From Polaribacter irgensii 23-P (GTDB lineage: Bacteria > Bacteroidota > Bacteroidia > Flavobacteriales > Flavobacteriaceae): a stretch of 64,000 bases of DNA. This document shows, piece after piece, positions 401 to 19,452 of this stretch (within the stretch, counting starts at the first letter, position 1; each line of letters begins with the position of its first letter). The translations under genes and the position numbers were made by a program. The notes under the pieces are model-generated. The model saw only the letters and a program-made list of their open reading frames with translations, was not told the DNA's origin and ran no database searches. The stretch lies in NCBI RefSeq assembly GCF_000153225.1, contig NZ_CH724148.1:1299538-1363537 (forward strand), read 5' to 3'.

Positions 401-525
401 AACGTTTTGGTATGAGTTTAATTGCGCATTTTAAGATACTAATTTAGTAAATACAAAACCAACTAGAAAATTCGCGAGGATTTTCGTAAGTAGAGTAGAA
501 CTAGCTATTAATTATACACGGTGTT
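401..525 (-). repeat. attC-like site 1 (short class)
   Basis: 125-bp repeat from AACG to GTGTT. Its inner hairpin (GAAAATTCGCGAGGATTTTC) differs from the other sites by paired changes that keep the stem. The outer arms end in TTAATTGC and GCTATTAATT, so the right arm is slightly diverged. Confidence 0.8.
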
Positions 526-540
526 GTAGGTTGTGTTTTT

Positions 541-1056
541 TTAGTCAATAAATTCTGTTTTATTAATTGAATCTATTTTTCCATTCTTAAAATAAAGGTC
601 GAGATTGTGAAACTTCCAACCCATTCCATGACCTTCGCTTCCCATAGAATAATTCCAGCTTTTTAAAGTGTCCATTTCTATCTTGAAATTATTCTCGGGT
701 TTTCCAAGAATTCCAACAATCTCATTTTTGGTTTTTCCAATTAATAATTTACTTTCAATTAGGTCTTTTCTCATATGATGGCGGTCTTTTTTGTTTTCAC
801 TCCATTCTATTGAGTTAAATTTTAATTCAGGATGATATTCATAAAATATAAATGAAAAGAAAATTGCAACAAATATTGAATAAACTATTGGTGTTAAAAT
901 GACTGAAGAAGCAATAGTTACGATAGTTTTCGAAATTCCTTTTCTAATAAATTTTCCAACTATCCAATTAATTATTAAATATAATAAGATTACAATTACT
1001 AATTGGAAATACCAATTTCCGGAAGATATGTTAAAATATTCAATCATTTTTTTCAT
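541..1056 (-). CDS. Two-TM protein with BamE/SmpA-like C-terminal domain (cassette cargo)
   Basis: 171 aa. Two hydrophobic segments (about residues 17-35 and 43-72) are followed by a soluble domain. Its pattern (LLIGKTKNEIVGILGKPENN near residues 104-123, then an aromatic strand and LDLYFKNGKI) resembles the SmpA/OmlA/BamE fold, in which a helix pair leads into a three-stranded sheet. Function is unknown and the family link rests on pattern only. The start lies 7 bp after site 2 and the stop 15 bp before site 1. The segment ends GTAGGT and ACCTAC are complementary, so the gene fills a complete single-gene cassette. Confidence 0.7.
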   Translation of the reverse strand: MKKMIEYFNISSGNWYFQLVIVILLYLIINWIVGKFIRKGISKTIVTIASSVILTPIVYSIFVAIFFSFIFYEYHPELKFNSIEWSENKKDRHHMRKDLIESKLLIGKTKNEIVGILGKPENNFKIEMDTLKSWNYSMGSEGHGMGWKFHNLDLYFKNGKIDSINKTEFID

Positions 1057-1063
1057 TACCTAC

Positions 1064-1190
1064 AACGTGTTTGTGTATGGTTAGTTGCGTGTTTTAAGAG
1101 ACTAATTTACTAAATAAAACAAGAACCAAGAAAGTCCGTTTGGACTTTCGTAAGTAAGCGATTTGCCAGCAATTAATTTTATACGGTGTT
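1064..1190 (-). repeat. attC-like site 2 (short class)
   Basis: 127 bp. The plus-strand left arm AACGTGTTTGTGTATGG pairs with the right end TATACGGTGTT, with about three extra bases in the left arm. The inner hairpin GAAAGTCCGTTTGGACTTTC is at 1130-1149. The end of this site supplies the stop codon (1179-1181) of the CPBP protease gene. Confidence 0.9.
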
Positions 1191-1931
1191 AGTAATAGTA
1201 CTTTCTTTTTCCCATTTCTTTATAATCAGAAACCAAATTACAACTGAAATACCTAAAATTATGATTTTTTCAGTTCCGTTAATTCCGTCTTTGATTAGGG
1301 CATTAAACATCATAATTTGGATAATCATATGAAAACAAGCACTTGCAATAATAGATTTTGTCGATTCAGCCACTTGTCCAATTCCCCAACTTCCAAGAAT
1401 CATCATTCCTAAAAAGAAAAGATTGTCGCCAAGACTTGCCTTTGTTAAAAATGTCAAATGCCATAAATACCAAAGAAATCCAATTATTAAATACTTTTCC
1501 CAAGACTTTAATCGTTTCAATTCCTCCTGCAAGTATCCTCTCCATCCATATTCCTCCATTATACAATAAAGAAAAGTGCCAATAGAAGCAATGAATCCAT
1601 AAATATGATAGTTCATTTCAAAGTCATTTTTCACTCCAATTATTATTAGAAGTGCTATTGGAATAAACATCATTATGAGACTTTTTGTCTTTGAAGTACC
1701 AAACAGGGAAATTTCTGTTTTTCGTTGTTTTTTTAATAATGGAAGAATTATTAAAGCACCAATTATAACTCCACTACCTTCTAAAAGAACAGAAGTTAAA
1801 ATAAAAATCCAAGTTGGTAATTTTTCCAATTCAGGTTTAATTTCGAAAATATCAAATCTGAAAATGTTTGATATTAATATTGAAATTAATAGAAATATTA
1901 TTATTCTTTTCCAACTTATTGGTCTACTCAT
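1179..1931 (-). CDS. CPBP family intramembrane metalloprotease (cassette cargo)
   Basis: 250 aa with about eight hydrophobic segments. The CPBP (Abi, type II CAAX protease-like) motifs are present: EEYGWRGYLQ with E126, E127 and R131, then H158 in LWHLT and H201 in CFHMI, the expected catalytic and metal-site residues. Known members process prenylated proteins in eukaryotes, and several bacterial ones give immunity to bacteriocins or act beside peptide toxins. The target here is unknown. The stop codon TAA lies inside attC-like site 2, so the cassette repeat contributes the last codons. A 105-bp leader separates the start from site 3, longer than for most cassettes here. Confidence 0.9.
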   Translation of the reverse strand: MSRPISWKRIIIFLLISILISNIFRFDIFEIKPELEKLPTWIFILTSVLLEGSGVIIGALIILPLLKKQRKTEISLFGTSKTKSLIMMFIPIALLIIIGVKNDFEMNYHIYGFIASIGTFLYCIMEEYGWRGYLQEELKRLKSWEKYLIIGFLWYLWHLTFLTKASLGDNLFFLGMMILGSWGIGQVAESTKSIIASACFHMIIQIMMFNALIKDGINGTEKIIILGISVVIWFLIIKKWEKESTITNTV

Positions 1932-2036
1932 TTATCAAGGTATTATTAATTAGGGTCAAACATCCAATAATAATTCTTTATAGAATAATATGATCTACCC
2001 AATTGTAGTTCGTTAGTTCTGAACTGTATTATTCCT

Positions 2037-2162
2037 AACGTGTTTGTACAAGATTAGTTGCTGTGGTTAAGCAATAAAGTTAATAAATAATAACTGACTA
2101 GAAAGTCCGCGAGGACTTTCGTAAGCTAAACGGAAACAAAGCAATTAATTTTGTACGGTGTT
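2037..2162 (-). repeat. attC-like site 3 (short class)
   Basis: 126 bp. The inner hairpin is GAAAGTCCGCGAGGACTTTC. The left arm has TTTGTACAAG where site 2 has TTTGTGTATGG, and the right arm changes to match (TTGTACGG), which is compensatory covariation. Confidence 0.9.
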
Positions 2163-2367
2163 GTAAGTAGTAGTTTTTTTACTGTTTATATTTTCATATT
2201 ATTTTTCTTTAGTATTTTTCATAAATTTAATACCAATAGTTTACATTTTATTAAATTCTACAATTTTGGAAGTTTCCTGTTTTCCTCTTTTGATTTTGAG
2301 AGTTAACTCCGGATTTAGTCTTTTTCTATTTTTTCAAATTTTAGAAATTCAAATTTAAATTTTATGT

Positions 2368-2547
2368 TTAATCTTTCATTATAAACTTCTCATAAAGCAG
2401 AGAGATTCCTCCTAAAATAATCCCAAAAATCAAAATAATTTTACTGTAAGGCCAATGTTGAAGTTTAAATACAGTACCAATTAATATTAATGCAGCACCA
2501 ATTTTTTGATTTCTTTGGGTTATTCTTTTAGTTCTTTTTTTTGTCAT
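2368..2547 (-). CDS. Small GldL-like membrane protein, 59 aa (cassette cargo)
   Basis: This 59-aa frame (ATG at 2545-2547, TAA at 2368-2370) starts with a basic stretch (residues 2-15, with eight Lys/Arg). Two transmembrane helices follow (about 16-28 and 36-51). The motif TVFKLQHWPYS (residues 25-35) between them resembles the FK-x-HWP signature of the N-terminal membrane hairpin of GldL, the gliding-motility/type IX secretion motor protein. Only this hairpin is present, so it cannot be a whole GldL. The segment ends GTAAG (2163) and CTTAC (2616) are complementary. The 205 bp between the stop and site 3 hold no recognised gene. Confidence 0.7.
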   Translation of the reverse strand: MTKKRTKRITQRNQKIGAALILIGTVFKLQHWPYSKIILIFGIILGGISLLYEKFIMKD

Positions 2548-2616
2548 AAAGCTATAATTAAGAGAACCTTTAATTTAAATGTTATTAGGTTTGAGTGATT
2601 TTTCGCTATTGCTTAC

Positions 2617-2741
2617 AACGTATTTGTATAAGATTAGTTGCGTATTTTAAGCACTATAGTTAGTAAATAAACACAGATAGAAAGTCCGCGAGGACTTTCG
2701 TAAGCTAAACAGAAACAAAGCAATTAATTTTGTACGGTGTT
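2617..2741 (-). repeat. attC-like site 4 (short class)
   Basis: 125 bp, nearly the same as site 3, with the same GCGAG inner loop and the TGTATAAG / TTGTACGG arms. Confidence 0.9.
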
Positions 2742-2754
2742 GTAATGCGTATTT

Positions 2755-3171
2755 TTATTCCGTTTTAATATTCAGCCATTTATTTCTCCAAATAGTTATT
2801 GTTCCAACAATTCCAATTAAAAAAATTATAAAAATGCCAATTCCAATATTTTTTGGCACCATTTTCAGATTAAAAAACATAAGTCCAATTAGTGGAAACA
2901 TTGCTCCAAATAAAGGCATTTTTTTATTCATGAATTTATTTCCGTTAACAATTATTTTTTCATGGTCGTCTGTATTCCGCAATTCCATTTTTTTACTTCC
3001 ACACCATTGAATTTTGGCTTTCAAAGATTCATTCTTTAAATCATTAGGAATTTCAATAGTTTTTTTCTCTCCGTTTTTTAATTCAGTCAGATATTTTTTT
3101 CCAAGGAATATTTCATATGAACAGTTTTTATTAAAACTCTCTTTTGGTCTACTTATCGTAATTTTTTTCAT
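2755..3171 (-). CDS. Hypothetical protein with C-terminal membrane hairpin (cassette cargo)
   Basis: 138 aa from ATG 3171 (MKKITISRP). An ATG at 3177 adds two residues, and a longer GTG start at 3219 would lie inside site 5 and is unlikely. Residues 1-72 form a predicted beta-rich soluble domain, with an apparent GKKYLTELKNGEKKTIEIP strand pair similar in style to DUF2846-like small sandwiches. Two transmembrane helices follow (about 86-101 and 108-126). No function can be assigned. The start is about 10 bp from site 5 and the stop 13 bp from site 4. Confidence 0.65.
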   Translation of the reverse strand: MKKITISRPKESFNKNCSYEIFLGKKYLTELKNGEKKTIEIPNDLKNESLKAKIQWCGSKKMELRNTDDHEKIIVNGNKFMNKKMPLFGAMFPLIGLMFFNLKMVPKNIGIGIFIIFLIGIVGTITIWRNKWLNIKTE

Positions 3172-3180
3172 ATGCATTAC

Positions 3181-3365
3181 AACGTTTAGTATAAGAAACG
3201 TAGGGCAATAAATAAGCACTATTGTTTCAGTTTATTACTGAGCTAAATATAAATATTTTGCTTTTATTTTTGTCTTAAATGCCAAATTTTATATTTAGCG
3301 GACTTTATAAATGAACACAGAACTTTGGAGTTAACACAAAAGCCCTATGTTTTTTATACATTGTT
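3181..3365 (-). repeat. attC-like site 5 (long class)
   Basis: 185 bp. The ends AACGTTTAGTATAAGAAACG and ATGTTTTTTATACATTGTT form an imperfect inverted repeat continuing into GTAGGGC / GCCCTAT. The interior differs from the short class. It shares GCCAAAT and GCGGACTT-type segments with sites 10 and 11. Confidence 0.8.
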
Positions 3366-3486
3366 GTGCTTAGTATTTTTAAATGGCAATGTATAGCATA
3401 ATAAAATTAATGATAAACATTAATAAATATTTGTTTGTCATTTTTTTTTACCTTTAATTTGCATTAATATTAAAACTTTTAATTTA

Positions 3487-3993
3487 ATGAAAACATTAAA
3501 ACATATTTCAGTAGCATTCTTAATTATGCTTATTTCAGGTTTAAGTTCTTACTATTTAAAACCTAATAACCCTATAATGATGACTTTTTTATTTTTAATA
3601 GTAGGGTTTTTTTTCTTCAATTTGATTCTTAGAAAATCACTTTCATTCAAGAGTTACTTTACAAGTCGGTATAATCTATTTACAACAAAGGTTCGGACGG
3701 AAAAGTCATATGATATACCAAAGGAATTGATGTTTGAAAAAATCATAGAGGTAATTAATCATTCAGATTTTAAATTGGTTGAAACAGATGAAAATAAATT
3801 TGAAATTCTAGCGATTTCAAAAATTACATTTAAATCTTGGGGCGAAAATTTATACATTAATTTTGAAACTAAAGGAAATGAAACAATAATGAAATTTTGT
3901 TCGTCAACACTATTCCAAATGTATTCTTGGGGGAAAAATGAAAAAAATTATGATAATTTATTAAATGAAATCGAAAGTTCATTAATAGTTTAA
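3487..3993 (+). CDS. Two-TM protein of unknown function (inverted cassette cargo)
   Basis: 168 aa. Two transmembrane segments (about residues 7-24 and 31-48) are followed by a soluble domain of about 115 residues rich in beta strands, ending ESSLIV. I do not recognise the family. It is one of only two plus-strand genes in the array and sits 12 bp upstream of a small XRE regulator, so the two probably form one unit with their own promoter in the 120-bp AT-rich leader after site 5. Small membrane protein plus Cro-like regulator pairs are common in Bacteroidota and Firmicutes, but what this one does is unknown. Confidence 0.7.
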   Translation: MKTLKHISVAFLIMLISGLSSYYLKPNNPIMMTFLFLIVGFFFFNLILRKSLSFKSYFTSRYNLFTTKVRTEKSYDIPKELMFEKIIEVINHSDFKLVETDENKFEILAISKITFKSWGENLYINFETKGNETIMKFCSSTLFQMYSWGKNEKNYDNLLNEIESSLIV

Positions 3994-4005
3994 ATTTATA
4001 AGTGT

Positions 4006-4209
4006 ATGCCTATAATAGTAAATTTAGATGTGATGTTAGCTAAACGTAAATTAAAGTTAAAAGAACTTTCTGAAAAAGTTGGTGTGTCAACAGTAAATTT
4101 ATCAATTTTAAAGCAAGGAAAAGTTAAAGCAATTCGTTTCACCACCTTAGATGCAATTTGCTTGGCATTAGACTGTCAACCTGGCGATATTTTAGAATAC
4201 GTTGAATAG
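4006..4209 (+). CDS. Small XRE/Cro-type DNA-binding protein
   Basis: 67 aa, a single helix-turn-helix domain. LKELSEKVGVSTVNLSILKQ (residues 17-36) is the HTH core and the ending CLALDCQPGDILEYVE is typical of the YozG-like group. Such proteins often sit beside a small membrane protein, as here (12 bp after the 168-aa gene). It probably controls its own two-gene unit. The stop lies 23 bp before site 6, so the pair occupies one complete cassette with ends GTGCTTA and TAAGCAC. Confidence 0.85.
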   Translation: MPIIVNLDVMLAKRKLKLKELSEKVGVSTVNLSILKQGKVKAIRFTTLDAICLALDCQPGDILEYVE

Positions 4210-4232
4210 AGTGTATCTTCGGCATTAAGCAC

Positions 4233-4358
4233 AACGTTGATGTATATGGTTTGTTGCGTGTTTCAAGCAACTAATTTAGTAAATAATTACCGACCAAGAA
4301 AGTCCGTTTGGACTTTCGTAAGTAGGCGAGAACTTAGCAATTAATTTTATAGGGTGTT
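4233..4358 (-). repeat. attC-like site 6 (short class)
   Basis: 126 bp with the GTTTG inner loop. The right end TTTTATAGGGTGTT has G where other sites have C. Confidence 0.9.
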
Positions 4359-4369
4359 GCCCACAGTAT

Positions 4370-5524
4370 TTATTTCTTTTTTATATTCGTAAGGGTTTTA
4401 AATTCCTTTTGAGAGTTTTCCAGTTTTTTTAGAAATTCCGACATTTCATTAGTTAATAATAAATATTCTTGTTTGTTCCAAAATTCTGGATTGAAAGACT
4501 TTTTTAGCTCAAAAAGATCTTTCTTAACAGATATGTTTTTATTAAGTTCTTTTTTTGTTTTACCTAATGCTATCCAAGAATATTCTACATCGTATATTGT
4601 TTTTTCTTCTTCTGCGATAACTTCGACTTGAGCTATTATTTTAGCTTTATCTAAAAAGTATATATTTTCTTCAATATTTTTTTTAAAGTATACCAAATAT
4701 TCAAAAGAAGTTGTTCTAAATTTAACTCCTCGTTTTTCCTGAAATATTTCTTTTGTGATAATGTTTTTTGATTTAAACTCTACAATAGCTTTATCTTTAT
4801 TGTTAATTAAATAATAACCTTCATTTTTTGATTTTTCTTCTGATTTTGGTGAAAAATGATGTTTGGTATATTCATCATTTTCAGATTTTGACTCATTGAA
4901 ATCATATAATTTAGTATTAATTCCTATGGAAGCAGTAAAATCAAGTATTTGCTTAAAACTGAACATTGAGAAATAAACAGCTTTTTCTTTAATTCCAGCT
5001 TTACGCATATTCAAAACTTCTATTTCGTAATTTCTTTTAGGCATTGGCTTTTTTGAAGTAGAAAAAAGTGTTTTTCTATTAACCGAACCGTTCAAATCTT
5101 GTAATTTTATTATGACTCCGTCTTTTCTTAAAAAGCATCTTAAAAAGAATGACTCAGAATAAGGCTTAAAAGGGTAGTTGTTATGTAACTCTTTGTAAAC
5201 ATTTGTTATTGAGTTTGAATTTCCTAAAATAATTTCGTCTAATGCTTCAAACTTACTTTCTAAAAAGATTGTGTCTTTTCTTATTTTTTCAAAAGTTGAA
5301 TAAATAGACTTATAACCAATTAGTCTAATTTTAACAGAATCTTTTTCTGAAACAAATAAGAATTTACCTTCAGAGTTTGTCGAAGTGAAATTAGTACTAT
5401 TGTATATATCCACATATTCAATAGGGTTTTTAGTGTCTGAATCAACTATAATTCCATTAAGTCTATTTTGACTAAAGGACTTGTTAATCACTAAGATTAT
5501 TAATATTAGTAGGGTTTTTCTCAT
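4370..5524 (-). CDS. Secreted protein with carboxypeptidase-like regulatory domain (cassette cargo)
   Basis: 384 aa. A signal peptide (residues 1-18, cleavage likely after SFS) leads into a carboxypeptidase-D regulatory-like beta-sandwich (about residues 21-90; RLNGIIVDSDTKNPIEYVDI, then GKFLF and IRLIGYKS). The remaining 290 residues are mixed alpha/beta and resemble Bacteroidota proteins of unknown function that carry this N-terminal domain. Such proteins are periplasmic or outer-membrane associated. No catalytic motif is visible. At 1.2 kb it is the longest single cargo gene here, ending 12 bp from site 6 and starting 9 bp from site 7. Confidence 0.75.
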   Translation of the reverse strand: MRKTLLILIILVINKSFSQNRLNGIIVDSDTKNPIEYVDIYNSTNFTSTNSEGKFLFVSEKDSVKIRLIGYKSIYSTFEKIRKDTIFLESKFEALDEIILGNSNSITNVYKELHNNYPFKPYSESFFLRCFLRKDGVIIKLQDLNGSVNRKTLFSTSKKPMPKRNYEIEVLNMRKAGIKEKAVYFSMFSFKQILDFTASIGINTKLYDFNESKSENDEYTKHHFSPKSEEKSKNEGYYLINNKDKAIVEFKSKNIITKEIFQEKRGVKFRTTSFEYLVYFKKNIEENIYFLDKAKIIAQVEVIAEEEKTIYDVEYSWIALGKTKKELNKNISVKKDLFELKKSFNPEFWNKQEYLLLTNEMSEFLKKLENSQKEFKTLTNIKKK

Positions 5525-5533
5525 ATTGTGGGC

Positions 5534-5660
5534 AACGTGTTTGTGTATGGTTAGTTGCGTGTTTTAAGAGACTAATTTACTAAATAAAACGAGAACCAAG
5601 AAAGTCCGTTTGGACTTTCATAAATAAGCTAAAAGCCAGCAATTAATTATACACGGTGTT
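5534..5660 (-). repeat. attC-like site 7 (short class)
   Basis: 127 bp, almost identical to site 2 over the left 80 bp. The segment to its right begins GTGCTT (5661). Confidence 0.9.
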
Positions 5661-5675
5661 GTGCTTTCGTTATTT

Positions 5676-6401
5676 CTATTTTCTAAAAATCAATTCTTTA
5701 TCTAAATGTTTAATTAATTCTTCAATAGATATCATAGCCTCTTTGTAAAAAAATAAACCTGCTTCTCTTTGAGAAATAATCCTTCCTAATATATTACTAA
5801 ACTGTTTGTTAATCTTCAAGCTTTCGAAATCATTTGGAGCAGCAGCTTGTTTAGAGTTTCTACTACTTATATGTTTATATATAAAAGGGTTAAACGCCTG
5901 TAAATTTGACCATTCTCCTTTGTCATAATCATTGATTAGTATAATAAGTTCAAACTCATACATACTTACAATTTTGTTTCTTAAAGGTAAATTTGATATG
6001 ATGTCCAAACCTTTAGTTTTTAATGTGGTATAAGCCGTTGTAATAGGATATGGGCTTTGCCAATCTCCAATCCATCCAAATGCGGTATTTAATTCAGTAT
6101 TATATGGTAAATCTTCATCAATGTAATGTTCTATTTTTCTAAACTGAAGGATTGAATTTCGATTTATAAGGGTATCATTTTTAAAACTATTTAATGTGTC
6201 TTCTAAATTTGATTTTACTTCAAGTAAAAGACTTAACTCTACATTATGAAGTTTTCGATTCTCATTCCAATTATTAATAGATAAAGCGATCAAAATACCA
6301 ATAACCACAAGTACAATTTCTCCGATTGCATATTTAAAATACTTTCCAGTTTTATTTTTCTCCATGAGGTTATATCGTATTTTTCTAAAAAATTTTATCA
6401 T
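5676..6401 (-). CDS. DUF6090 family membrane protein (cassette cargo)
   Basis: 241 aa. The N-terminus has the DUF6090 signature: a basic MIKFFRKIRYNLMEKNKTGK, then KYFKYAIGEIVLVVIGILIAL (single TM, about residues 22-41) and SINNWNENRK. A mostly helical soluble domain follows. The family is widespread in Flavobacteriia, often in several copies per genome, and has no known function. Here it fills one cassette: the start is 28 bp after site 8 and the stop 16 bp before site 7, with ends GTGCTT and AAGCAC. Confidence 0.85.
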   Translation of the reverse strand: MIKFFRKIRYNLMEKNKTGKYFKYAIGEIVLVVIGILIALSINNWNENRKLHNVELSLLLEVKSNLEDTLNSFKNDTLINRNSILQFRKIEHYIDEDLPYNTELNTAFGWIGDWQSPYPITTAYTTLKTKGLDIISNLPLRNKIVSMYEFELIILINDYDKGEWSNLQAFNPFIYKHISSRNSKQAAAPNDFESLKINKQFSNILGRIISQREAGLFFYKEAMISIEELIKHLDKELIFRK

Positions 6402-6429
6402 TGATTATCCGTTTGTTATAATGAAGCAC

Positions 6430-6555
6430 AACGTGTTTGTGTATGGTTTTTTGCGCGTTTTAAGAGACTAATTTAGTAAATAAAACATAAACCAAGAAAG
6501 TCCGTTTAGACTTTCGTAAATAAGCTAAAACCAGCAATTAATTAAACACGGTGTT
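6430..6555 (-). repeat. attC-like site 8 (short class)
   Basis: 126 bp. The inner hairpin loop variant is GTTTA. The right end AAACACGGTGTT pairs with GTGTTTGTGTATGG. Confidence 0.9.
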
Positions 6556-6557
6556 GG

Positions 6558-7217: not shown

Positions 7218-7220
7218 GCC

Positions 7221-7344
7221 AACGTGTTTGTATAATGTTAGTTGCGTATTTTAAGCACGAAAGTTAATAAATAAATCACAGATAGAAAGTCCGTTTGGAC
7301 TTTCGTAAATAAGCTAAAACCAACAATTAATTTTATACGGTGTT
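7221..7344 (-). repeat. attC-like site 9 (short class)
   Basis: 124 bp with the GTTTG inner hairpin loop. The following segment starts AGCTTT (7345). Confidence 0.9.
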
Positions 7345-7645
7345 AGCTTTTAGTGCTTCTTTTTATTCATAATTTACCATTCAGTAACTTTTTTTTTGTT
7401 TAGCTTTAAGCCAACTTTGTTAGGTTCTTATAATTCCATGGCATTTAACCTAACATTTTTTTTTACTTGTTTTTCATTCCGCAAACCTGCTAATTTCCGT
7501 TTAGTTTTTAATTCAGGTTTGCGTAATTAATTCCGTGAATTTTTAAATTCCGATTGTGCGAGATTTCGAGTTTTAAATTCATTTTTCAATTCCAAAAACT
7601 AATTAAAAGACAGAGGTAATATAATTCAGAGTTTGAATTTTATTA
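7345..7645. other. Non-coding part of cassette 9
   Basis: About 300 bp with no long open frame. It is pyrimidine-rich on the plus strand and contains the 11-mer AATTCCGATTG (7546-7556) shared with two other cassettes. It may be a decayed second gene. Confidence 0.5.
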
Positions 7646-7837: not shown

Positions 7838-7886
7838 TTTTTCTATTTAAATTCAGTTTTCACAAACTTTCTCACGCATTAAAGCT

Positions 7887-8073
7887 AACGTCTAGGCTGT
7901 GGTTAGTAAGGGAATTAAAAGTAATAAACTTTCGATTAAGCACTTAGCCAAAACTTTTTTATTTTGTTTTATCTTTTCAATTTTAAAGCCAAATCCAAAG
8001 ATTTTGCGGTTTTTGTAAAATGCACTGACCTTTTAGATGAGCACCAAAACCCGTATTAATTATAGCCATTGTT
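7887..8073 (-). repeat. attC-like site 10 (long class)
   Basis: 187 bp. The ends AACGTCTAGGCTGTGGTTAG and TTAATTATAGCCATTGTT pair imperfectly. Interior hairpins are built from GCCAAATCC / GATTTTGCGG. It is about 80% similar by eye to site 11 over most of its length. Confidence 0.85.
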
Positions 8074-8135
8074 GGCTGTTCGTTATATTTTCCTAGCGAT
8101 TGTGATAGATAAAAACAAAAACAAAAACAAAAACA

Positions 8136-8162
8136 AAAGTGAGAGTTATAAACCCTCACTTT
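8136..8162 (-). terminator. Terminator of the isochorismatase-family gene
   Basis: The inverted repeat AAAGTGAG / CTCACTTT with an 11-nt loop is followed on the minus strand by a T-rich tract formed by a run of CAAAAA units (8111-8135). Confidence 0.65.
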
Positions 8163-8186
8163 CATTAAAATAAACTTTATTCAATT

Positions 8187-8921: not shown

Positions 8922-8988
8922 TTTAGTTTCATTTTAAAAATTAATTATTTAGTGATGTATTATATCTTTGAATACCTCATCACTTTTT

Positions 8989-9536
8989 TTATGATTTGAT
9001 TAATTCTAATTCTTGAGCTACTGGAAAATCAATATCGATTTGAGTTAATTTGTGTAGGTAGTTCATTACAACTTTGTCACCTACTGCTAAAATAACATCA
9101 ACTAAAGTTTCTTTTGAATAGCCAACGTTAAAAAAGTCTTCTAGTATTGTGTCATCAAATTTTCCTTTGTTGATGGTAATAGCTTTTGCTACTTTAACAA
9201 GGGCATCAAATTTTTCGTTAGTGGAAAAATAACCTTGTCTTAATTCTAAAATTTGTTCATCTGTAAAACCATTAATTTTACCAAATACGGTATGGGCAGA
9301 TAAGCAATAGTTACACCCGTTTACTTGGCTAACTATTAAGTTCACAACTTCCTTTTCTTTTTTAGAAAGAGACGTTTTAGCATTTTGAAATTGTAAATAA
9401 TTTCCTAAAGCAGTATCAGAATATGCAATCGTTGCATAAAGGTTAGGTACAAAACCTACTGCTTTTTTAAGTCTTCAAAAATTTCTTGATTTTTTGAAGA
9501 GACCTCTTCTCTTGTTGGTACATTAAAATTTGTCAT
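8989..9536 (-). pseudogene. AhpD/carboxymuconolactone decarboxylase-like gene with frameshift
   Basis: The intact reading would be about 182 aa. The ATG at 9534-9536 opens MTNFNVPTREEVSSKNQ, and the frame breaks at a run of six A (plus-strand T run 9463-9468). Seven would restore DLKKAVGFVPNLYA and join the rest. The downstream part has the CxxC peroxidase motif GCNYCLSAH (the AhpD-like E..CxxC..H site). A GTG start at 9345 would give a 118-aa fragment lacking the first helices. It could be a real knockout, a slippage site or a sequencing error at the homopolymer. Known relatives are alkylhydroperoxidase-like proteins protecting against peroxides. Confidence 0.75.
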
Positions 9537-9635
9537 AATATTCTGTTTTTAAATTTGTTTATCATTATTTATAGTGCAAAGATGCGAACAGAATACAATG
9601 TTTTATTAGGTAGGTTTTCCCTTAATGTTGGCAAT

Positions 9636-10466
9636 TTATCCCAAAAGAGATTTTTCTCGATATTTTGAAGGAGAAAGACCTTCTTGTTTCTTAAAAAATC
9701 GACTAAATGACTGAATGTCATCATAGCCAATTTTAAAAGCGATTTCTTGAATTTGTATGTCAGAATAAAATAGCAACCGTTTTGCTTCAAGCATTTTACG
9801 GTCTTGGATATAACTTAATGGTGTTTTTGTTCCTTTTTTTGAAAAAATATTGGAAATTGTTTTAGGGGATTTATACAATAAATCTGCATATTCGGCTACA
9901 GTATGTTTTGTGTTAAAATGCTGCTCTACTAAAAAATTAAATTCTCTAATAATATCGCTTTCCTTTTTAATTTTCGAAAATTGGTGTTGCTCCTTATATA
10001 ATTGTGTACATAATATCAGGTATCGTTTTAACATCATTTGCAACATACCTATTTGTAAGTTGTCTTTAGATTGCATTTCTATTGAAAACATTTTCCAGAG
10101 AATTTGAAAATGTTCTATTCCTTTATTTGGAATAGTAATAATTGGTACTTGAGATGCACCAAAAAATAAAATTCCTTTACAACTTACTTCAATATCGTGA
10201 TCTATGATACAAAAAAAAGGTCTGTTAAATCTTAAAAACTTAATCTCACCCTTTTTAATCACTTTTACTTTATGAAATTCGGTAAGAAAAATAATTTGAT
10301 TTTTAGCAAAGTGATAGTTTTTGCCATCAATTATAAACTCATTGTTACCTGTTTGAAACCATAGTACTGTTAAAATTTTTGCTTCTGGATTATCGAAAAT
10401 ACCACAATCCAGAATTCCAAGTTCTTTCAGTTCTATAAAATTGTCTGTTTTTCCTTTTATTTTCAT
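9636..10466 (-). CDS. AraC-family transcriptional regulator
   Basis: 276 aa. The N-terminal cupin-like sensor domain (residues 1-150) includes ILTVLWFQTGNNEFIIDGK. The C-terminal double helix-turn-helix (about residues 175-270) has HTVAEYADLLYKSPKTISNI and IQEIAFKIGYDDIQSFSRFF, the classic second HTH with GY-D--SFSR-F. It probably controls the AhpD-like and isochorismatase genes that follow it on the same strand. The start lies 17 bp from site 11, so this regulator occupies the cassette end nearest the recombinase. Confidence 0.9.
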   Translation of the reverse strand: MKIKGKTDNFIELKELGILDCGIFDNPEAKILTVLWFQTGNNEFIIDGKNYHFAKNQIIFLTEFHKVKVIKKGEIKFLRFNRPFFCIIDHDIEVSCKGILFFGASQVPIITIPNKGIEHFQILWKMFSIEMQSKDNLQIGMLQMMLKRYLILCTQLYKEQHQFSKIKKESDIIREFNFLVEQHFNTKHTVAEYADLLYKSPKTISNIFSKKGTKTPLSYIQDRKMLEAKRLLFYSDIQIQEIAFKIGYDDIQSFSRFFKKQEGLSPSKYREKSLLG

Positions 10467-10483
10467 TTTTTTTAATGACAGCC

Positions 10484-10669
10484 AACGTCTCGGCTATGGT
10501 TAGTGCGGGAGTAGGAGAGTAGTGAACTTTCGAACTGGAACTTAGCCAAAACTTTTTATTTTGTTTTATCTTTTCATTTTAAAGCCAAATCAAAAGATTT
10601 GGCGGACTTAGTAAATGTACCAAAACTTTAGGTTAAGCACCAAAACCCGTATTAATTATAGCCATTGTT
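10484..10669 (-). repeat. attC-like site 11 (long class)
   Basis: 186 bp. The arms AACGTCTCGGCTATGGTTAG and TTAATTATAGCCATTGTT pair, and GCCAAATC / GATTTGGC forms an inner hairpin. Beyond the arms come GTGCGGG and CCCGTAT, also complementary. Confidence 0.85.
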
Positions 10670-10680
10670 GGCAGTTGGCC

Positions 10681-11610
10681 TTATTTTTTATAGTTAATAT
10701 AATTTCTTTTATTTAAATCTAAATAGTCGTTTCTAATTGTCAAATACCATTTTCGGTATTCATCAAGTTTTTCTGGCACTCTTTTTCTAATAAATATATT
10801 ATAAATTTCAAGTAGTAAAGATGCGGTATTAAAAGTCACATTTTGAGTATGCTCGAAATCTCGAATTTGAATAATTTGAGCGCTGTCGTTACCGACATAA
10901 ACCATTCCCTTTGTCAAATTAAGTCCGTGAACATTTTCGGAATATTTTCTGTAGAAAAATTCGTAACGTATATTCTTCTTTAACTTTTGTGCTAATTGCT
11001 CCAAATTGTCAGGACCATTATATAAAGAATACCAATTTGGATTTTTCCTCTTTTTAGATGTTCTTAAATATTCTTTTTGAACTTCTGAAAATTCGGGCTT
11101 CTCCAACAAACTCTTTTTGGATTCTTTAGTTTTAATAATTTCGGGATGATCCATAAATTTGTCAAAATTCAAATTCAATTCATCTTTTTCAATTTGAATT
11201 TTAAATTGTGATGAACTATTTTCTGTCTTGATAAATTTATTATAATATTTGATGTCTTTATTGGCTTTTGCAACCATATAAGATAATACCCTTTGTCTTT
11301 CCTTTTCCTCCAACATATAAATTAACTGAAGGATATTTTCTATTAAAGTTCTTAAGATTATTTTTGAAGGGTCAATTGATGATTCTTTAATTAAGATTGA
11401 AATGGAATCACTAAGTTCTAATATATTTCTGAAAAACAAGGTCGGGATATTATTATCTTTTCCTTCCCTTTTTACTTCAACATCCCATTTTAAAATATGT
11501 GTTCCGAAATTCACAATTTCAGCAACTAGTTTCGAGAAATGATTTTGAATTTTAATCAAATATTCATCTCGATTCAATGGGAGTATGTCGTCAATTGGGT
11601 TAGTTTTCAT
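10681..11610 (-). CDS. DUF5677-like protein (cassette cargo)
   Basis: 309 aa from the ATG at 11608-11610 (MKTNPIDDILPL). A TTG further upstream at 11628 lies inside site 12 and is unlikely. The largely helical sequence, with the centre FRNILELSDSISILIKESS and ILRTLIENILQLIYMLEEKE then RKYSENVHGLN, matches the DUF5677 pattern, a helical bundle with a conserved Arg/Glu face and a late S-x-x-VH. The family is often seen in accessory regions. A role in phage or abortive defence is possible but not shown. The stop lies 12 bp from site 11. Confidence 0.75.
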   Translation of the reverse strand: MKTNPIDDILPLNRDEYLIKIQNHFSKLVAEIVNFGTHILKWDVEVKREGKDNNIPTLFFRNILELSDSISILIKESSIDPSKIILRTLIENILQLIYMLEEKERQRVLSYMVAKANKDIKYYNKFIKTENSSSQFKIQIEKDELNLNFDKFMDHPEIIKTKESKKSLLEKPEFSEVQKEYLRTSKKRKNPNWYSLYNGPDNLEQLAQKLKKNIRYEFFYRKYSENVHGLNLTKGMVYVGNDSAQIIQIRDFEHTQNVTFNTASLLLEIYNIFIRKRVPEKLDEYRKWYLTIRNDYLDLNKRNYINYKK

Positions 11611-11626
11611 TTTTCGGCTTACTGCC

Positions 11627-11750
11627 AACGTGTTTGTGTAAGTTTAGTTGCGGCTTTGAGAAGTGAAATTAGTACATAAACGACAAACAGAGGGTCTGCG
11701 AGGACTTTCGTAAGTAGGCTAGGATCGAGCAATTAAATTTACACGGTGTT
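11627..11750 (-). repeat. attC-like site 12 (short class)
   Basis: 124 bp. The inner stem is weakened (GAGGGTCTGCGAGGACTTTC) and the arm reads GCGGCTTTGAG rather than GCGTGTTTTAAG, making it the most diverged short-class site. Confidence 0.85.
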
Positions 11751-11776
11751 GCCATTTCGTTGTTTCAATTCCGTTT

Positions 11777-12043
11777 TTATTTCCTTTTTAATTTTTTTTT
11801 TAAATATAATTCACTGAAATACTTAAAACGTTTGCCAGGGATTATCATTTTCCAAATATCTTGTTTTTGGATTATGTTTTTATCTGCAAGTCTTTTCCCG
11901 TCCACATAAGTTCTGAATATTAAAGCATAAAAAAATAAAAGCAAAACGAACAATGTTGGGTTCATCAAGTCTGTTTTACTTAGCCAGTTTAATATTCCAA
12001 GTGGCAATAAGATTGTTAAATAGTAGATAAATAAATTTTTCAT
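11777..12043 (-). CDS. Small membrane protein (cassette cargo)
   Basis: 88 aa from the ATG at 12041-12043 (MKNLFIYYLT). The longer frame from 12094 adds a low-complexity stretch and is less likely. Two hydrophobic segments (about residues 4-19 and 26-43) precede a basic tail rich in Lys (ending KKKLKRK). No family is recognised. It shares its cassette with the 77-aa gene at 12206-12439. The 160 bp between them contain a frame reading ELFTQSELKKFEKEY to a stop without a start codon, apparently a gene remnant. Confidence 0.5.
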   Translation of the reverse strand: MKNLFIYYLTILLPLGILNWLSKTDLMNPTLFVLLLFFYALIFRTYVDGKRLADKNIIQKQDIWKMIIPGKRFKYFSELYLKKKLKRK

Positions 12044-12205
12044 TTTTTTTATTTTAATCGTTAGAGTAAATGTATTCAGCGTATTCTTTCTCAAACTTTT
12101 TTAATTCCGATTGAGTGAAAAGTTCCGAGACTTTCTAAATTCCGCATACAAATTGGTTTTTAGTTTTTCAATTTAGATTCTGACAACAAACTAAAACTTC
12201 AGTTT

Positions 12206-12439
12206 TTATATGGAAATGGGTTTTCTTAAAAAAATCCACATCACTTGCATTTTTTTTTCTGATTGAGTTTCATATTCTTTTATTCTTGGTGATAAAATTG
12301 CCATAATTCCAGCACTAATCATTGCTTTATAAGGATTTTCTAAATTTTCGAAAGAAAAGTGTAAAATTATCCAAACGATTAGAAAAATAATAAATGATAT
12401 TAAATATCTTAAAATAATAACTTTAGTTTTTTTGTTCAT
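12206..12439 (-). CDS. Small membrane protein (cassette cargo)
   Basis: 77 aa with a basic start (MNKKTKVIILR), one clear TM helix (about residues 10-28) and a second weak one (about 39-51). No known family. It starts 37 bp from site 13. With the 88-aa gene downstream it makes a two-gene cassette with ends GCCATT and AATGGC. Confidence 0.5.
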   Translation of the reverse strand: MNKKTKVIILRYLISFIIFLIVWIILHFSFENLENPYKAMISAGIMAILSPRIKEYETQSEKKMQVMWIFLRKPISI

Positions 12440-12476
12440 GTTTCAAATATTTGAGTGCGTTCCGTCAATGAATGGC

Positions 12477-12601
12477 AACGTGTTTGTACAAGATTAGTTG
12501 CTGTGTTTAAGCACTTAAGTTAATAAATAATAACTGAATAGAAAGTCCGCGAGGACTTTCCTAAATAAGCCAATATAAAGCAATTAATTTTGTAAGGTGT
12601 T
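12477..12601 (-). repeat. attC-like site 13 (short class)
   Basis: 125 bp with the GCGAG inner loop. The right end TTGTAAGGTGTT pairs with GTGTTTGTACAAG. Its last two bases form part of the stop codon of the HNH-like gene. Confidence 0.9.
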
Positions 12602-13364
12602 ATGTGCTGCCTTTTAACTCTTTTTCACTTCTATAGTCCATTGGAAAAGGATAATATGTTGGGTATTTATTCAAAATAATCATCGAATTTTTCATTTCTT
12701 TATTTTTGTCATAATCTTTAAAACTAGTTATTTCCGTTAATTTCATTAATTGATTAGGATTATCTAAACTCAAGACAAAACCAAAAGGGCTGAAAGTAAA
12801 TTCGCATATTGCTCCATGTAAGTTCGTATAATGAATGGTTCCGTTTCTGTTTTGACCCTCATTATTCAAATACATATAAAATCTATATTTTTCAGATAAC
12901 TCCATTAATTTTTCATTCTTAACAAATTCCAAAAGTTCAGGATAACATTCGGTAAAAACAAAATTATTTGAAGCAATGAAAATTGCCGTTATTTGTTTCA
13001 GAAATTTAAGAAGATTTATGTCAGAAATATCGAATTGAAAGGCTTTAATATTTTTATCATTTGATTGAATTATATTCATTGCTATATGTGCGAAATCTTT
13101 GTAAGTCCTAACATACTTTGAGCCGAGATATCCATTACAATCAATACAAAAACTATATTCTCCAATTCCACCCTGTTCTTTTCTTGTTTTAGGTTTAAGA
13201 TTTTCAAAAGTATATTCTTTCGCTTTTTTATAATATTCAGTCTGTTCTAAAATGTAGTATTTTGTTTCTTTATTAAATGCTGAACGTGGTGGAATATGCT
13301 CGAAATTCAATTCTTTTGTTTCTAGGCATAGTTTACATTTTCCAACTTTTGTTCTTTTTCTCAT
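12600..13364 (-). CDS. HNH-endonuclease-like protein (cassette cargo)
   Basis: 254 aa. Residues 10-13 (CKLC) and a second pair (CIDC near residues 73-76) make a four-Cys zinc site. Between them lies NFEHIPPRSAFN, with the His of an HNH/McrA-like beta-beta-alpha metal motif, and FCIDCNGYLGSKY supplies the Asn. The remaining 170 residues have no recognised domain. Such proteins cut DNA in restriction or phage-defence settings, but specificity is unknown. The stop TAA (12600-12602) overlaps the end of site 13, so the cassette carries almost no spare sequence. The start is 19 bp from site 14. Confidence 0.75.
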   Translation of the reverse strand: MRKRTKVGKCKLCLETKELNFEHIPPRSAFNKETKYYILEQTEYYKKAKEYTFENLKPKTRKEQGGIGEYSFCIDCNGYLGSKYVRTYKDFAHIAMNIIQSNDKNIKAFQFDISDINLLKFLKQITAIFIASNNFVFTECYPELLEFVKNEKLMELSEKYRFYMYLNNEGQNRNGTIHYTNLHGAICEFTFSPFGFVLSLDNPNQLMKLTEITSFKDYDKNKEMKNSMIILNKYPTYYPFPMDYRSEKELKGST

Positions 13365-13383
13365 TTTTTGTTAGGTTGCACAT

Positions 13384-13509
13384 AACGTCTTTCTATAAGG
13401 TTATTTGCGTGTTTCAAGCACTATAGTTAGTAAATAAAACACAAACCAAGAAAGACCGCAAGGACTTTCGTAAATAAGCTAAAACCAGCAATTAATTTTA
13501 TACATTGTT
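13384..13509 (-). repeat. attC-like site 14 (short class, nearest the recombinase)
   Basis: 126 bp. The left arm AACGTCTTTCTATAAGGTTA and the right end ATTTTATACATTGTT use the TTGTT ending of the long class with a short-class interior (GAAAGACCGCAAGGACTTTC). It is therefore intermediate between the two classes. Confidence 0.85.
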
Positions 13510-13741
13510 GGCAACAGTATTTTTATTTTCCGATTTCCCTTTCTTTTCTAAAACTCTAATTTTGCGTGACTTTTTAAAATTTAAAAACTTTTATTCAACT
13601 TTAATTTTTTCGTAATTTACTTATTTTCATAAACTTGTTCAATTCCGATTGAATGATAATTTCGCCATAATTTTTGGAGTTCAATTCAGTTTTTTGTAAT
13701 TTGATTCATTTCTCATTATTGGGAATTCCGCAACACTTTTT

Positions 13742-13924
13742 TCAAGAGTCAGTTCGGTTTCTCATAATTGATTTAATCAATTTATAACAATATAAAATTC
13801 CGAGTAAAAACATAGCTCCGCAAAACCAATATTCCGCTTTTGAGTAATAACTTATTCCGCCAAATATTCCAAATACTGTCCATAATAGATTCGCTAGAAC
13901 TTCGGTTTTATTCAATTTGTTCAT
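13742..13924 (-). CDS. Small two-TM protein, first cassette of the array
   Basis: 60 aa with two hydrophobic segments (about residues 9-27 and 30-49; VFGIFGGISYYSKAEYWFCG) and a basic tail. No family is recognised. In integron logic this cassette lies next to the attachment site and is therefore the most recently inserted. The segment ends GGCAA and TTGCC are complementary. The 230 bp between the stop and site 14 hold no gene, but contain AATTCCGATTG (13641-13651). Confidence 0.5.
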   Translation of the reverse strand: MNKLNKTEVLANLLWTVFGIFGGISYYSKAEYWFCGAMFLLGILYCYKLIKSIMRNRTDS

Positions 13925-13945
13925 GTTTTCTGTTTGTCTGTTATA

Positions 13946-14060
13946 TTATTGCCAACTTGTATATAGGCTTACCTTTTATCCGCATAAGACTCCATATTGG
14001 GGGGATATGCGGAAGTTTAGTGTTTATAGTATGCTTTTGTTTTTGCATAAAAATAGGGGA
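13946..14060 (-). other. Candidate attI-like attachment region beside the recombinase
   Basis: The first cassette ends TTGCC at 13953 and is followed by AACTTGTATATAGGCTTACC, which looks like a single outer arm of the cassette repeats (compare AACGTCTTTCTATAAGG in site 14). No matching right arm is present. Farther along, TCCGCATA (about 13979) and TATGCGGA (about 14006) form an 8-bp hairpin. A lone half-site between integrase and first cassette is what an attI would look like. The hairpin could instead be the terminator of the recombinase operon. Confidence 0.6.
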
Positions 14061-15185
14061 TTAAAACAAATCATTAAACGGATTTTTAATTTTTTTTAAA
14101 CTTGTTTGTGTAACATGGGTATAGATCATCGTGGTTTTGGGGCTACTGTGGCCCAAGAGCTCTTGAATATATCGAATGTCGGTCCCCTTTTCTAACAGAT
14201 GAGTGGCAAAACTGTGCCGTAAAGAATGCAACGTTGCTTTCTTGCGAATACCTGCTTTAAACAAAGCGTTTTTTAATACTTTTTGTGCACTTGCATCGCT
14301 ATAGGTGCTTCCGTTTGCTCCTTCAAATAGAGAGTTCTTCGGTCTGTAAGCAACGTAATAATCCCTTAAAATTTTTAGAAAAACTGGAGACAAAAGGGTA
14401 TATCTGTCTTTTTTTCCTTTCGCTTGCCGACCATAAATGAGCATTCTCTGACAGTCAATATCAGTTACTTCTAAAGTAATCGCCTCACCAATCCGCAAGC
14501 CAGCAGAATACAACAGGCTTAAAAGAGCTTTGTGTTTTAAGTTGGTAATTGTACTAAAAATGGCTTTTATTTCAGCACCACTTAATATAATGGGTAATTT
14601 CTTTTCTTTTCGAGGTCTTTCAATCGGGATTTCTTCGTAGGCATATCCTTTATAGGCAAAAAACTTTTGTATGCCACCGATAAACTGATTTTGATAGGAA
14701 ATAGACTTGTTGGGTACGAAAATAGAATCATAGTTAAAAGCTGCTACTGTTTTCATCGAGAACAAATCCGCTTTTTTTAAGAGAGCATACCGAATATAGG
14801 TAGCCGTGACAGTAACATAGGTATGCACTGTGTTTTTACTCAATCTTTTTTGAAACAGCCATTTTTTAAATTTGCGTACATCAGTCATATATAATTCTGG
14901 TATTTCAGCTATTAAATGCGAATTTCTTTTTTCTGCGATGCTGCTTTTATTAATAAAAGGTTGCAACTCTAAAGAGACAACAGTCCAGTTCGGTTTTTTA
15001 AAATGGGTAAAAATAAGGGCGATATTTTCTAAAGAGAGCTCCATATAAAAACAACGCAAGGTGCGACTCCAAGAAACGTTGTCAAGGTTTTGAAGATGGT
15101 TTTTGATCTCATCATCATACGAAAACCGAATAGAAAGCACGTTTTTAGTCCGATGTTTAGCGGTACTTAAAGTTATTTTTTTCAT
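14061..15185 (-). CDS. Tyrosine recombinase, probable cassette integrase
   Basis: 374 aa. It has an extra N-terminal domain (residues 1-78), a SAM-like core-binding domain (about 90-185) and a catalytic domain (about 195-360). Catalytic residues are R231 (GLRIGE), K256-K259 region (QAKGKKDR), H320 and R323 (HSLRH), H346 (LLGHSS) and nucleophile Y355 (MIYTHV). The length between R231 and H320 is like XerC/D, and the additional helix that IntI proteins carry before HxLRH is absent. The gene is 39 bp downstream of the DnaE-type polymerase gene, and its 3' end faces the cassette array, in the same direction as the cargo. I infer that it integrates and excises the cassettes. It could instead be a resident Xer-like enzyme. 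Confidence 0.85.
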   Translation of the reverse strand: MKKITLSTAKHRTKNVLSIRFSYDDEIKNHLQNLDNVSWSRTLRCFYMELSLENIALIFTHFKKPNWTVVSLELQPFINKSSIAEKRNSHLIAEIPELYMTDVRKFKKWLFQKRLSKNTVHTYVTVTATYIRYALLKKADLFSMKTVAAFNYDSIFVPNKSISYQNQFIGGIQKFFAYKGYAYEEIPIERPRKEKKLPIILSGAEIKAIFSTITNLKHKALLSLLYSAGLRIGEAITLEVTDIDCQRMLIYGRQAKGKKDRYTLLSPVFLKILRDYYVAYRPKNSLFEGANGSTYSDASAQKVLKNALFKAGIRKKATLHSLRHSFATHLLEKGTDIRYIQELLGHSSPKTTMIYTHVTQTSLKKIKNPFNDLF

Positions 15186-19400: not shown

Positions 19401-19401
19401 T

Positions 19402-19450: not shown

Positions 19451-19452
19451 TT

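What the first reader, a model, noticed from the sequence alone, without database searches (positions are those of the whole stretch)
401..15185. Integron-like cassette array with its own tyrosine recombinase in a Flavobacteriaceae genome
Fourteen attC-like palindromic repeats separate unrelated, mostly minus-strand single-gene segments, ending at a tyrosine recombinase gene. The layout (gene, repeat, gene, repeat, half-site, integrase) is that of an integron. Yet the repeats are longer than attC covariance models expect, the recombinase lacks the IntI insert, and integrons are rarely reported in Bacteroidota. I suggest it is a distinct integron-like platform.
Basis: partly seen in the sequence, partly recalled or inferred. 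Interest (0 to 1): 0.96.

Follow-up and report, generated by a model that had tools for sequence, protein, structure and literature searches.

The report
Bacteroidota integron with non-IntI recombinase
Fourteen gene units, each with matching ends, sit beside a recombinase gene that likely inserts and removes them, as in the integrons that spread antibiotic resistance, but this enzyme lacks the insert that marks integron integrases and belongs to a separate branch.

Summary
Window 401-13953 holds 14 cassettes. The variable bases outside each AAC...GTT repeat are complementary across the cassette, not across the repeat: 88 of 98 positions, at most 72 in 100,000 shuffles. Integron R''/R' chemistry predicts this. 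The recombinase (14061-15185) keeps all catalytic residues, lacks the ~42-residue IntI insert (63-69 residues between two catalytic residues in 66 of 66 family members, 106 in 17 of 17 IntI) and falls outside the IntI clade. Around 20 relatives, 17 loci carry such repeats, all 85 hits downstream and on the gene's strand. A predicted attI ((A)TATAAACAA^GTT or similar) lies 101-228 nt after the gene in 11 of 17 loci. Whole cassettes recur with ends at the predicted crossover. Canonical IntI passes its cut-off in 0 of 15 genomes of this family. Remnants of this recombinase family lie upstream of tet(X3), tet(X5) and blaVEB-3 on plasmids, and the blaVEB-1 cassette of a class 1 integron shows this system's end signature. 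Recombination itself is untested.

The parts
14061..15185 (-). Tyrosine recombinase (integrase), 374 aa; R231, K256, H320, R323, H346, Y355 invariant in an alignment with 38 relatives; no IntI insert
   Evidence: Pfam PF00589 E=1.5e-35; alignment A3; spacing 63-69 against 106 in IntI; model pLDDT 85.7
13954..14060 (-). Predicted attI: AAC/GTT boundary of the first cassette and the stretch to the recombinase stop (cassette strand: ...CCTATATACAA^GTTGGCAATA)
   Evidence: GTT plus complement of the first cassette's R'' flank (5 of 6), 105 nt after the stop; like place in relatives
13384..13509 (-). attC of cassette 1 (126 nt); body 13510-13953 with a 60-aa ORF 13742-13924
12477..12601 (-). attC of cassette 2 (125 nt); body 12602-13383 with a 254-aa ORF; the whole cassette recurs at 84% in genome G227 with ends at the boundaries
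11627..11750 (-). attC of cassette 3 (124 nt); body 11751-12476
10484..10669 (-). attC of cassette 4, long variant (186 nt); body 10670-11626, DUF5677 gene
7887..8073 (-). attC of cassette 5, long variant (187 nt); body 8074-10483 with isochorismatase, carboxymuconolactone decarboxylase and AraC-type genes
7221..7344 (-). attC of cassette 6 (124 nt); body 7345-7886
6430..6555 (-). attC of cassette 7 (126 nt); body 6556-7220, no ORF of 60 aa or more listed
5534..5660 (-). attC of cassette 8 (127 nt); body 5661-6429, DUF6090 match
4233..4358 (-). attC of cassette 9 (126 nt); body 4359-5533, 384-aa ORF; recurs at 73% in genome G300
3181..3365 (-). attC of cassette 10, long variant (185 nt); body 3366-4232 with two plus-strand genes (168 aa; HTH_26 67 aa)
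2617..2741 (-). attC of cassette 11 (125 nt); body 2742-3180; a stretch covering it recurs at 93% in another array of this genome
2037..2162 (-). attC of cassette 12 (126 nt); body 2163-2616, no ORF of 60 aa or more listed
1064..1190 (-). attC of cassette 13 (127 nt); body 1191-2036, CAAX protease-like gene
401..525 (-). attC of cassette 14 (125 nt); body 526-1063; the array continues beyond the window's left end
15224..18181 (-). dnaE2-type DNA polymerase gene directly upstream of the recombinase (38-nt gap)
   Evidence: Pfam; same order in L094, and C-terminal part of dnaE2 in L076
18186..19400 (-). imuB-type (IMS family) polymerase gene, upstream of dnaE2
   Evidence: Pfam
19453..20226 (+). 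Divergent HTH plus peptidase S24 regulator, predicted LexA-like SOS repressor
   Evidence: Pfam HTH_3, Peptidase_S24

Best explanation
Window 401-15185 is an integron-type system in which 14 gene cassettes with complementary ends are likely cut out and inserted at a predicted attI site by the adjacent tyrosine recombinase, which lacks the IntI insert and groups outside the IntI clade. Shown by sequence: each cassette starts with (G)TTnnnnnnn and ends with nnnnnnnAAC followed by a 124-187 nt attC-like repeat; the n-stretches are complementary within the cassette; array and recombinase are linked and co-oriented across relatives; whole cassettes recur with ends at that boundary. Inferred: crossover at G^TT, excision as a circle whose restored attC folds as a single strand, capture at attI 3' of the recombinase gene, and joint expression of recombinase and first cassettes with the imuB-dnaE2 operon under a predicted S24 (LexA-like) repressor, which would tie cassette shuffling to DNA damage.
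For: End-complementarity: window 88 of 98 over 14 cassettes, 0 of 100,000 shuffles, same-repeat control 38 of 98; genome-wide subset 18 of 22 pairs at 5/6 or better against 0 of 42 within one repeat; relatives 29 of 37 against 5 of 53. Restored circle attC folds better than the integrated site in 12 of 14 (mean -22.4 against -17.6 kcal/mol; wrong-flank control -17.7). Linkage: 85 of 85 model hits downstream and co-oriented, in 17 of 20 loci. attI found beside the gene in 11 of 17 loci and, by a search without that motif, a partner in 21 of 62 loci of a genome collection: 25 of 255 GTTs against 6 of 510 control GTTs. Recurrence: a 934-nt identical stretch twice in L089 and 554-nt identical copies in L095 with ends at AAC; cassette 2 in G227. 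Four tyrosine recombinases in the genome; the other three lie 79 kb or more from the clusters found. Genomes of the genus with the recombinase carry more sites (median 26 in 27 genomes against 4 in 9, one-sided p=0.0004; without seven incomplete genomes 23 against 6 genomes, p=0.003). Catalytic residues invariant. The same blaVEB start follows a remnant of this recombinase in L100 and attI1 in L101.
Against: No recombination was observed. Three integrated repeats, both strands, fold only modestly better than shuffles (z -1.3 to -2.2). RNAalifold predicts just 5 pairs, and two of five pair measures for my hand-set structure do not exceed shuffles, though three do. In one search, 2 of 14 circle folds were weaker than the integrated site. 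L080, L083 and L085 show no R1 hit. Genomes without the recombinase at E 1.3e-58 or better still have sites (G004, G006, G012, G015, G022, G032), so linkage is not absolute. The imuB-dnaE2 link holds in a minority: 4 further loci (2 of them remnants) of 72 searched.
Confidence: 0.88

Rival explanations
1. The cassettes are real, but another recombinase (XerCD or one acting in trans) moves them; the adjacent gene is a passenger or regulator.
For: Xer-type recombinases occur in the genome; arrays without the recombinase gene occur in relatives; the closest solved structures are archaeal Xer and IntI.
Against: The linkage is one-sided, with 85 of 85 hits 3' of this gene and co-oriented; the attI-like junction tracks this gene in chromosomes and a plasmid; the other recombinase genes here lie 79 kb or more from the clusters found.
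Confidence: 0.07
2. A fossil: the arrays were built by such a system, but it no longer recombines in this genome.
For: No activity data; some repeats in other clusters are truncated or split.
Against: Intact ORF with invariant catalytic residues; the ends of all 14 window cassettes match in 6-7 of 7 positions; identical copies of whole cassettes in relatives.
Confidence: 0.12
3. The repeats are ordinary palindromic intergenic elements (terminators or MITE-like elements) and the cassette picture is chance.
For: The repeats hold inverted stretches and lie between genes.
Against: Each repeat's own two flanks do not match, while the flanks of one cassette do; an element with target duplication would show the opposite pattern. 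Cassettes recur as gene plus repeat units.
Confidence: 0.01
4. It is a canonical integron with a diverged IntI.
For: Second-best NCBIfam model is integron integrase, 178.7 bits; 2a3v (an integron recombinase) is among the closest structures.
Against: Below the IntI cut-off of 265 bits; insert absent; outside the IntI clade, support 100 for IntI.
Confidence: 0.05

Closest known systems
Sedentary chromosomal integrons with IntI (Vibrio, Xanthomonas, Treponema and others)
   Same: Cassettes with attC at the 3' end of the gene, R''/R' complementarity within the cassette, attI beside the recombinase gene, long one-strand arrays (G013: 147 sites in the genome, a run of about 100 kb beginning next to its recombinase), possible SOS link.
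   Different: Recombinase without the IntI insert and with a ~95-residue N-terminal extension; separate clade; array lies 3' of the recombinase gene and reads in the same direction (the classical layout has it on the other side, recalled; archaeal attI are described as downstream of intI, PMC9668308, passage); variable stem of about 7 nt after GTT, then a conserved mismatch, then about 3 more pairs.
TnpF / 'XerD' fragment upstream of tet(X3) and tet(X5) (ISCR2-tpnF-tet(X); PMC7722449, passages read)
   Same: 53% identical to residues 161-373 of this recombinase and 189 nt upstream of the resistance gene.
   Different: N-terminal part missing (221 aa left); no R1 hit and no matching R'' downstream of tet(X) on the cassette strand; the main text of that paper does not hold the word integron. 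The name XerD for it is recalled.
blaVEB-1 cassette of class 1 integrons (PMC3518468, passages read)
   Same: 125 nt between AAC and GTT, hit by the model (22.1 bits, E=0.004, filters off, one 5.9-kb record), and the 7-match, mismatch, 3-match end signature.
   Different: Resident in an IntI1 integron in L101; GC-richer (0.55); the score is far below that of the family's own sites (111-141 bits in the window).
Xer recombinases, archaeal XerA
   Same: Same fold and catalytic core; also without the IntI insert (68-72 residues in the two Xer-type proteins of this genome).
   Different: This family has an N-terminal extension and an array beside it; the Xer-type genes of this genome have no array near them.

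Membership tests
Integron (IntI-based) | IntI integrase with the additional domain around patch III | tested here: not met
   63-69 residues between aligned K256 and H320 in 66 of 66 family members, 106 in 17 of 17 IntI; 25 against 68 residues between matched blocks in the 2a3v alignment
Integron (IntI-based) | Integrase groups within the IntI clade | tested here: not met
   17 IntI rows one clade (100), 52 of 55 family rows another (SH-aLRT 91, quick tree); the relation between the two is unresolved
Integron (IntI-based) | attC sites with complementary R'' and R' split across the cassette junction | tested here: met
Integron (IntI-based) | attI site beside the integrase gene | tested here: met
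   sequence level only: predicted by complementarity in 11 of 17 loci with a downstream site, plus L095 as seen, and supported by a second search; function untested
Integron (IntI-based) | Array of cassettes, mostly in one orientation | tested here: met
   14 in the window, about 80 sites in the genome
Integron (IntI-based) | Recombination of the folded bottom strand of attC | tested here: inconclusive
   restored sites fold better than integrated ones on average on both strands; bottom -22.4, top -19.8 kcal/mol; no enzymology
Integron (IntI-based) | Integrase-dependent excision and insertion | not testable with these tools
   needs experiment
Xer recombinase | Above a curated XerC, XerD or XerA cut-off | tested here: not met
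   XerA_Arch 189.5 of 220, XerD 165.6 of 329.6, XerC 154.9 of 335.15
Cassette shared with class 1 integrons | Cassette start at the same position in two platforms | tested here: met
   blaVEB sequences of L100 and L101 agree from the A before GTT onward (87 bases from GTT before the first mismatch) and differ upstream of it

The most novel reading that the evidence does not exclude
A second class of integrons, spread through the Bacteroidota and run by a recombinase lineage separate from IntI, with its own attI and attC code; it is the home platform from which blaVEB, and probably tet(X), entered the mobile gene pool of Proteobacteria.
Probability: 0.6. Interest if true: 0.96.

Novelty: new variant of a known kind. 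Interest (0 to 1): 0.93.

Why it matters
IntegronFinder looks for integrases with HMM profiles and reports one complete integron in Bacteroidetes proper, Salinibacter ruber M1 (PMC9024848, passages). Here a different recombinase family appears to do the same job: in this genus 27 of 36 genomes have it (fragments counted) and 33 of 36 have its sites, up to 147 in one genome. If true, cassette capture works with an enzyme that lacks the domain described as necessary for integron recombination (PMC9668308, passage), which makes the role of that domain directly testable. It also gives a likely source platform for the blaVEB cassette and a lead for tet(X).

Tried and rejected
Rfam at gathering threshold found only a tRNA in the window. 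A first regex with a wrong right-end pattern found no repeats; corrected. Folding the window protein alone gave pLDDT 36.6 and was not used. RNAalifold on the plain alignment was uninformative, so the structure was set by hand and the model R1 built from it. An attC after tet(X5), tet(X3) or blaVEB-3 was not found: no R1 hit in L096, L097 or L100, and no exact 8-9 nt complement for tet(X) on the cassette strand. Phage records held only partial relatives, 0 of 980 covering 80% of the query. The motif count was ambiguous (17 of 66 family rows also had a second loose match at 106-107), so the insert was measured again on an alignment. Strain-level comparison was not possible: the genome collections hold one genome per species. 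IntegronFinder's attC model is not available here. In the structure comparison the N-terminal ~95 residues are barely covered by the listed matches, so nothing is claimed about their fold.

Papers: search listings; passages only of PMC8618304, PMC9668308, PMC9024848, PMC7722449, PMC3518468, PMC8565304. None of these listings showed me a report of this recombinase family as an integron integrase; most subscription papers and bioRxiv preprints are not in the library. SOS control of intI (Cambray 2011) was seen only as a reference entry.

Rows dropped: sites without full model ends or without AAC/GTT ends were left out (42 of about 80 own sites used; 53 of the relatives' sites used). In one search family proteins over 430 aa were left out (55 of 66 used), and L045 gave no protein. 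A3 leaves out L125, L130, L136 and the two plasmid rows. In one search, 18 of 80 loci were not tested (no usable hit, no stop, or under 900 nt downstream). One search scored 40 of 86 candidates and one search kept the best 80 of 582, so neither is complete.


Full report
WHAT IS THERE. The window lies at G000:C1:1299538-1363537 of a 2.76-Mb genome. Window 401-13953 holds 14 repeat-bounded units. Eleven repeats are one family (124-127 nt from AAC to GTT), and three are longer variants of 185-187 nt. Sites of the main family form five clusters in the genome (about 0.99, 1.291-1.313, 1.736-1.788, 2.146-2.150 and 2.311-2.381 Mb), about 80 in all; one search gave 83 rows, of which one is the window's own site seen again at a locus edge and two look like split halves. 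Within each cluster the sites share one strand, apart from weak opposite-strand shadows of the same sites. The search for Phage_integrase finds four tyrosine recombinases. One is the window gene 14061-15185, 0.55 kb from the first repeat; two (about 300 aa) lie 79 kb or more from any cluster found, and a 415-aa one lies at 0.18 Mb.

THE END TEST. In an integron the crossover splits the R' box, so the variable bases that pair with R'' sit at the far end of the same cassette, not on the other side of the same repeat (established integron knowledge, recalled). That is the pattern here. Over the 14 window cassettes, 88 of 98 positions (7 per cassette) are complementary; 100,000 shuffles reach at most 72; the two flanks of one repeat match at 38 of 98. 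With sites that have full ends elsewhere in the genome, 18 of 22 neighbouring pairs match at 5 or 6 of 6, against 0 of 42 within one repeat and 67 of 1,678 unrelated pairs; in relatives 29 of 37 against 5 of 53 and 121 of 2,682. The eighth position is almost always a mismatch (3-5% matched), and most of the next two or three pair again. When a cassette's own ends are put together as in a circle, the site folds better in 12 of 14 cases (mean -22.4 against -17.6 kcal/mol; wrong-flank control -17.7, sd 0.4 over 200 draws). Weak points: three integrated sites fold with z of only -1.3 to -2.2, RNAalifold predicts 5 pairs, and two of five pair measures of the hand-set structure do not beat shuffles.

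LINKAGE IN RELATIVES. Of 59 genomes searched, 58 have some match to the protein, many only Xer-level; a separate full-length group stands out. I fetched the surroundings of 20 of its members from 18 genomes. The model R1 hits 17 of the 20 loci, 85 hits, all 3' of the recombinase and on its strand, none upstream. L080 (recombinase with stops), L083 (other family, with its own repeats) and L085 (3.3-kb contig) gave none. In the genus, R1 finds sites in 33 of 36 genomes counting this one; in 23 genomes of other families of the order, in 2. With more sensitive settings G013 has 147 sites, listed in at least two runs, one of about 100 kb that begins next to its recombinase, and G016 has 75.

ATTI. 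Taking the complement of the first cassette's R'' flank and looking for GTT plus that string after the recombinase stop finds a junction at 101-228 nt in 11 of 17 loci with a downstream site, preceded by (A)TATAAACAA, ATATAACCA or variants. Two of the 11 match at 5 of 6 (window, L090; in L090 a 6-of-6 site lies farther on), and in L076 a second 6-of-6 site ties. In L095 the hit at +644 is the next boundary, and an attI-like end is visible beside the gene. In the remaining five the best junction lies farther on and looks like an attC end, as expected if the first cassette has an attC type that my search misses. A scan of named genomes (best 80 kept) without the motif found a partner in 21 of 62 testable loci, 17 of them with the 7-match, mismatch pattern, among them Algoriphagus, Cyclobacterium, Rufibacter, Winogradskyella, Seonamhaeicola and Zunongwangia; 25 of 255 GTTs near the gene had a partner against 6 of 510 inside it.

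MOVEMENT. L089 holds a 934-nt stretch twice at 100% identity that begins at AAC of one boundary and ends at AAC(GT) of the next; L095 holds 554-nt identical copies with such ends. Cassette 2 of the window occurs in G227 (84%, window 12474-13390 against boundaries 12477-13386) and cassette 9 in G300 (73%, 4232-5555 against 4233-5536), with other flanks. L201-L205 hold relatives of window cassette genes without clear site ends. The nearest relative (recombinase 83%, dnaE2 part 84%) shares no stretch of 350 nt or more at 88% identity with the window's cassettes.

SOS CONTEXT. The recombinase lies 38 nt after a dnaE2 gene and an imuB gene on the same strand, opposite a divergent HTH plus S24 peptidase gene. 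The same order is seen in L094, and the C-terminal part of dnaE2 precedes the gene in L076; dnaE2 remnants precede it in L077 and L078; the other 68 of 72 loci searched do not show it, many with short flanks. S24-family regulators control the SOS response, with evidence for imuA-imuB-dnaE2, in Bacteroidetes (PMC8565304, passages). SOS control here is inferred.

CLINICAL GENES. In plasmid records a fragment of this family (residues 161-373, 51-53% identity) lies directly upstream of tet(X3) and tet(X5) in Acinetobacter and of blaVEB-3 in Klebsiella. The Chryseobacterium plasmid L098 carries a longer member (347 aa) with an attI-like end (ACATATAAACAA^GTT) 105 nt after its stop; L099 carries a second member. 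The blaVEB-1 cassette in a class 1 integron has 125 nt between AAC and GTT, is hit by R1 (22.1 bits, E=0.004 in 5.9 kb, filters off; next hit 9.0 bits), and shows the 7-match, mismatch, 3-match ends; aadB (first 9 paired) and arr-2 (first 5 paired) in the same record do not. blaVEB in L100 and L101 agrees from the A before GTT onward and differs upstream. R1 finds nothing after tet(X) or blaVEB-3 in L096, L097 and L100. So blaVEB likely came from this kind of system; for tet(X) only the neighbouring remnant speaks for it. Aubert and colleagues found that the veb1 attC (133 bp) diverges in 2L and 2R from the consensus (PMC3518468, passages; author name recalled).

VERDICT. It works like an integron at the points that sequence can show. 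It is not a member of the IntI-based family, because the insert and clade tests are not met. I rate it a new variant of a known kind.

Noticed in passing
window 3366-4232: Cassette 10 carries two plus-strand genes (168 aa and a 67-aa HTH_26 protein), opposite to the rest; it may have its own promoter, as toxin-antitoxin cassettes do elsewhere (recalled).
   Followed up: no
window 8074-10483: Cassette 5 is a 2.4-kb unit with isochorismatase, carboxymuconolactone decarboxylase and AraC-type genes; relatives of two of them lie next to each other in G012 and G228.
   Followed up: partly
L095 1182-9688: Five near-identical 554-nt cassettes (four identical) whose end resembles attI (CATATAGGTACTA^GTT) rather than the 125-nt attC.
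   Followed up: partly
L077 and L078 (genome G034): Two recombinase platforms in one genome with 98% identical stretches around them, so the platform itself appears duplicated; dnaE2 remnants lie upstream of both.
   Followed up: partly
window 19401-19452: The stretch between imuB and the S24 regulator gene holds perfect dyads (TTTGTA-N8-TACAAA, ACAAAT-N6-ATTTGT), candidate operators read by eye.
   Followed up: no
phylum sample: Canonical IntI passes its cut-off in 45 of 111 phylum genomes outside this class, more than the literature passages I read suggest.
   Followed up: no
L139 (Spirochaetota MAG): A relative outside Bacteroidota shows the same attI-junction signature; contamination or transfer.
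   Followed up: no
window 50866-50939: A tRNA gene on the minus strand, the only Rfam match in the window at gathering threshold.
   Followed up: no
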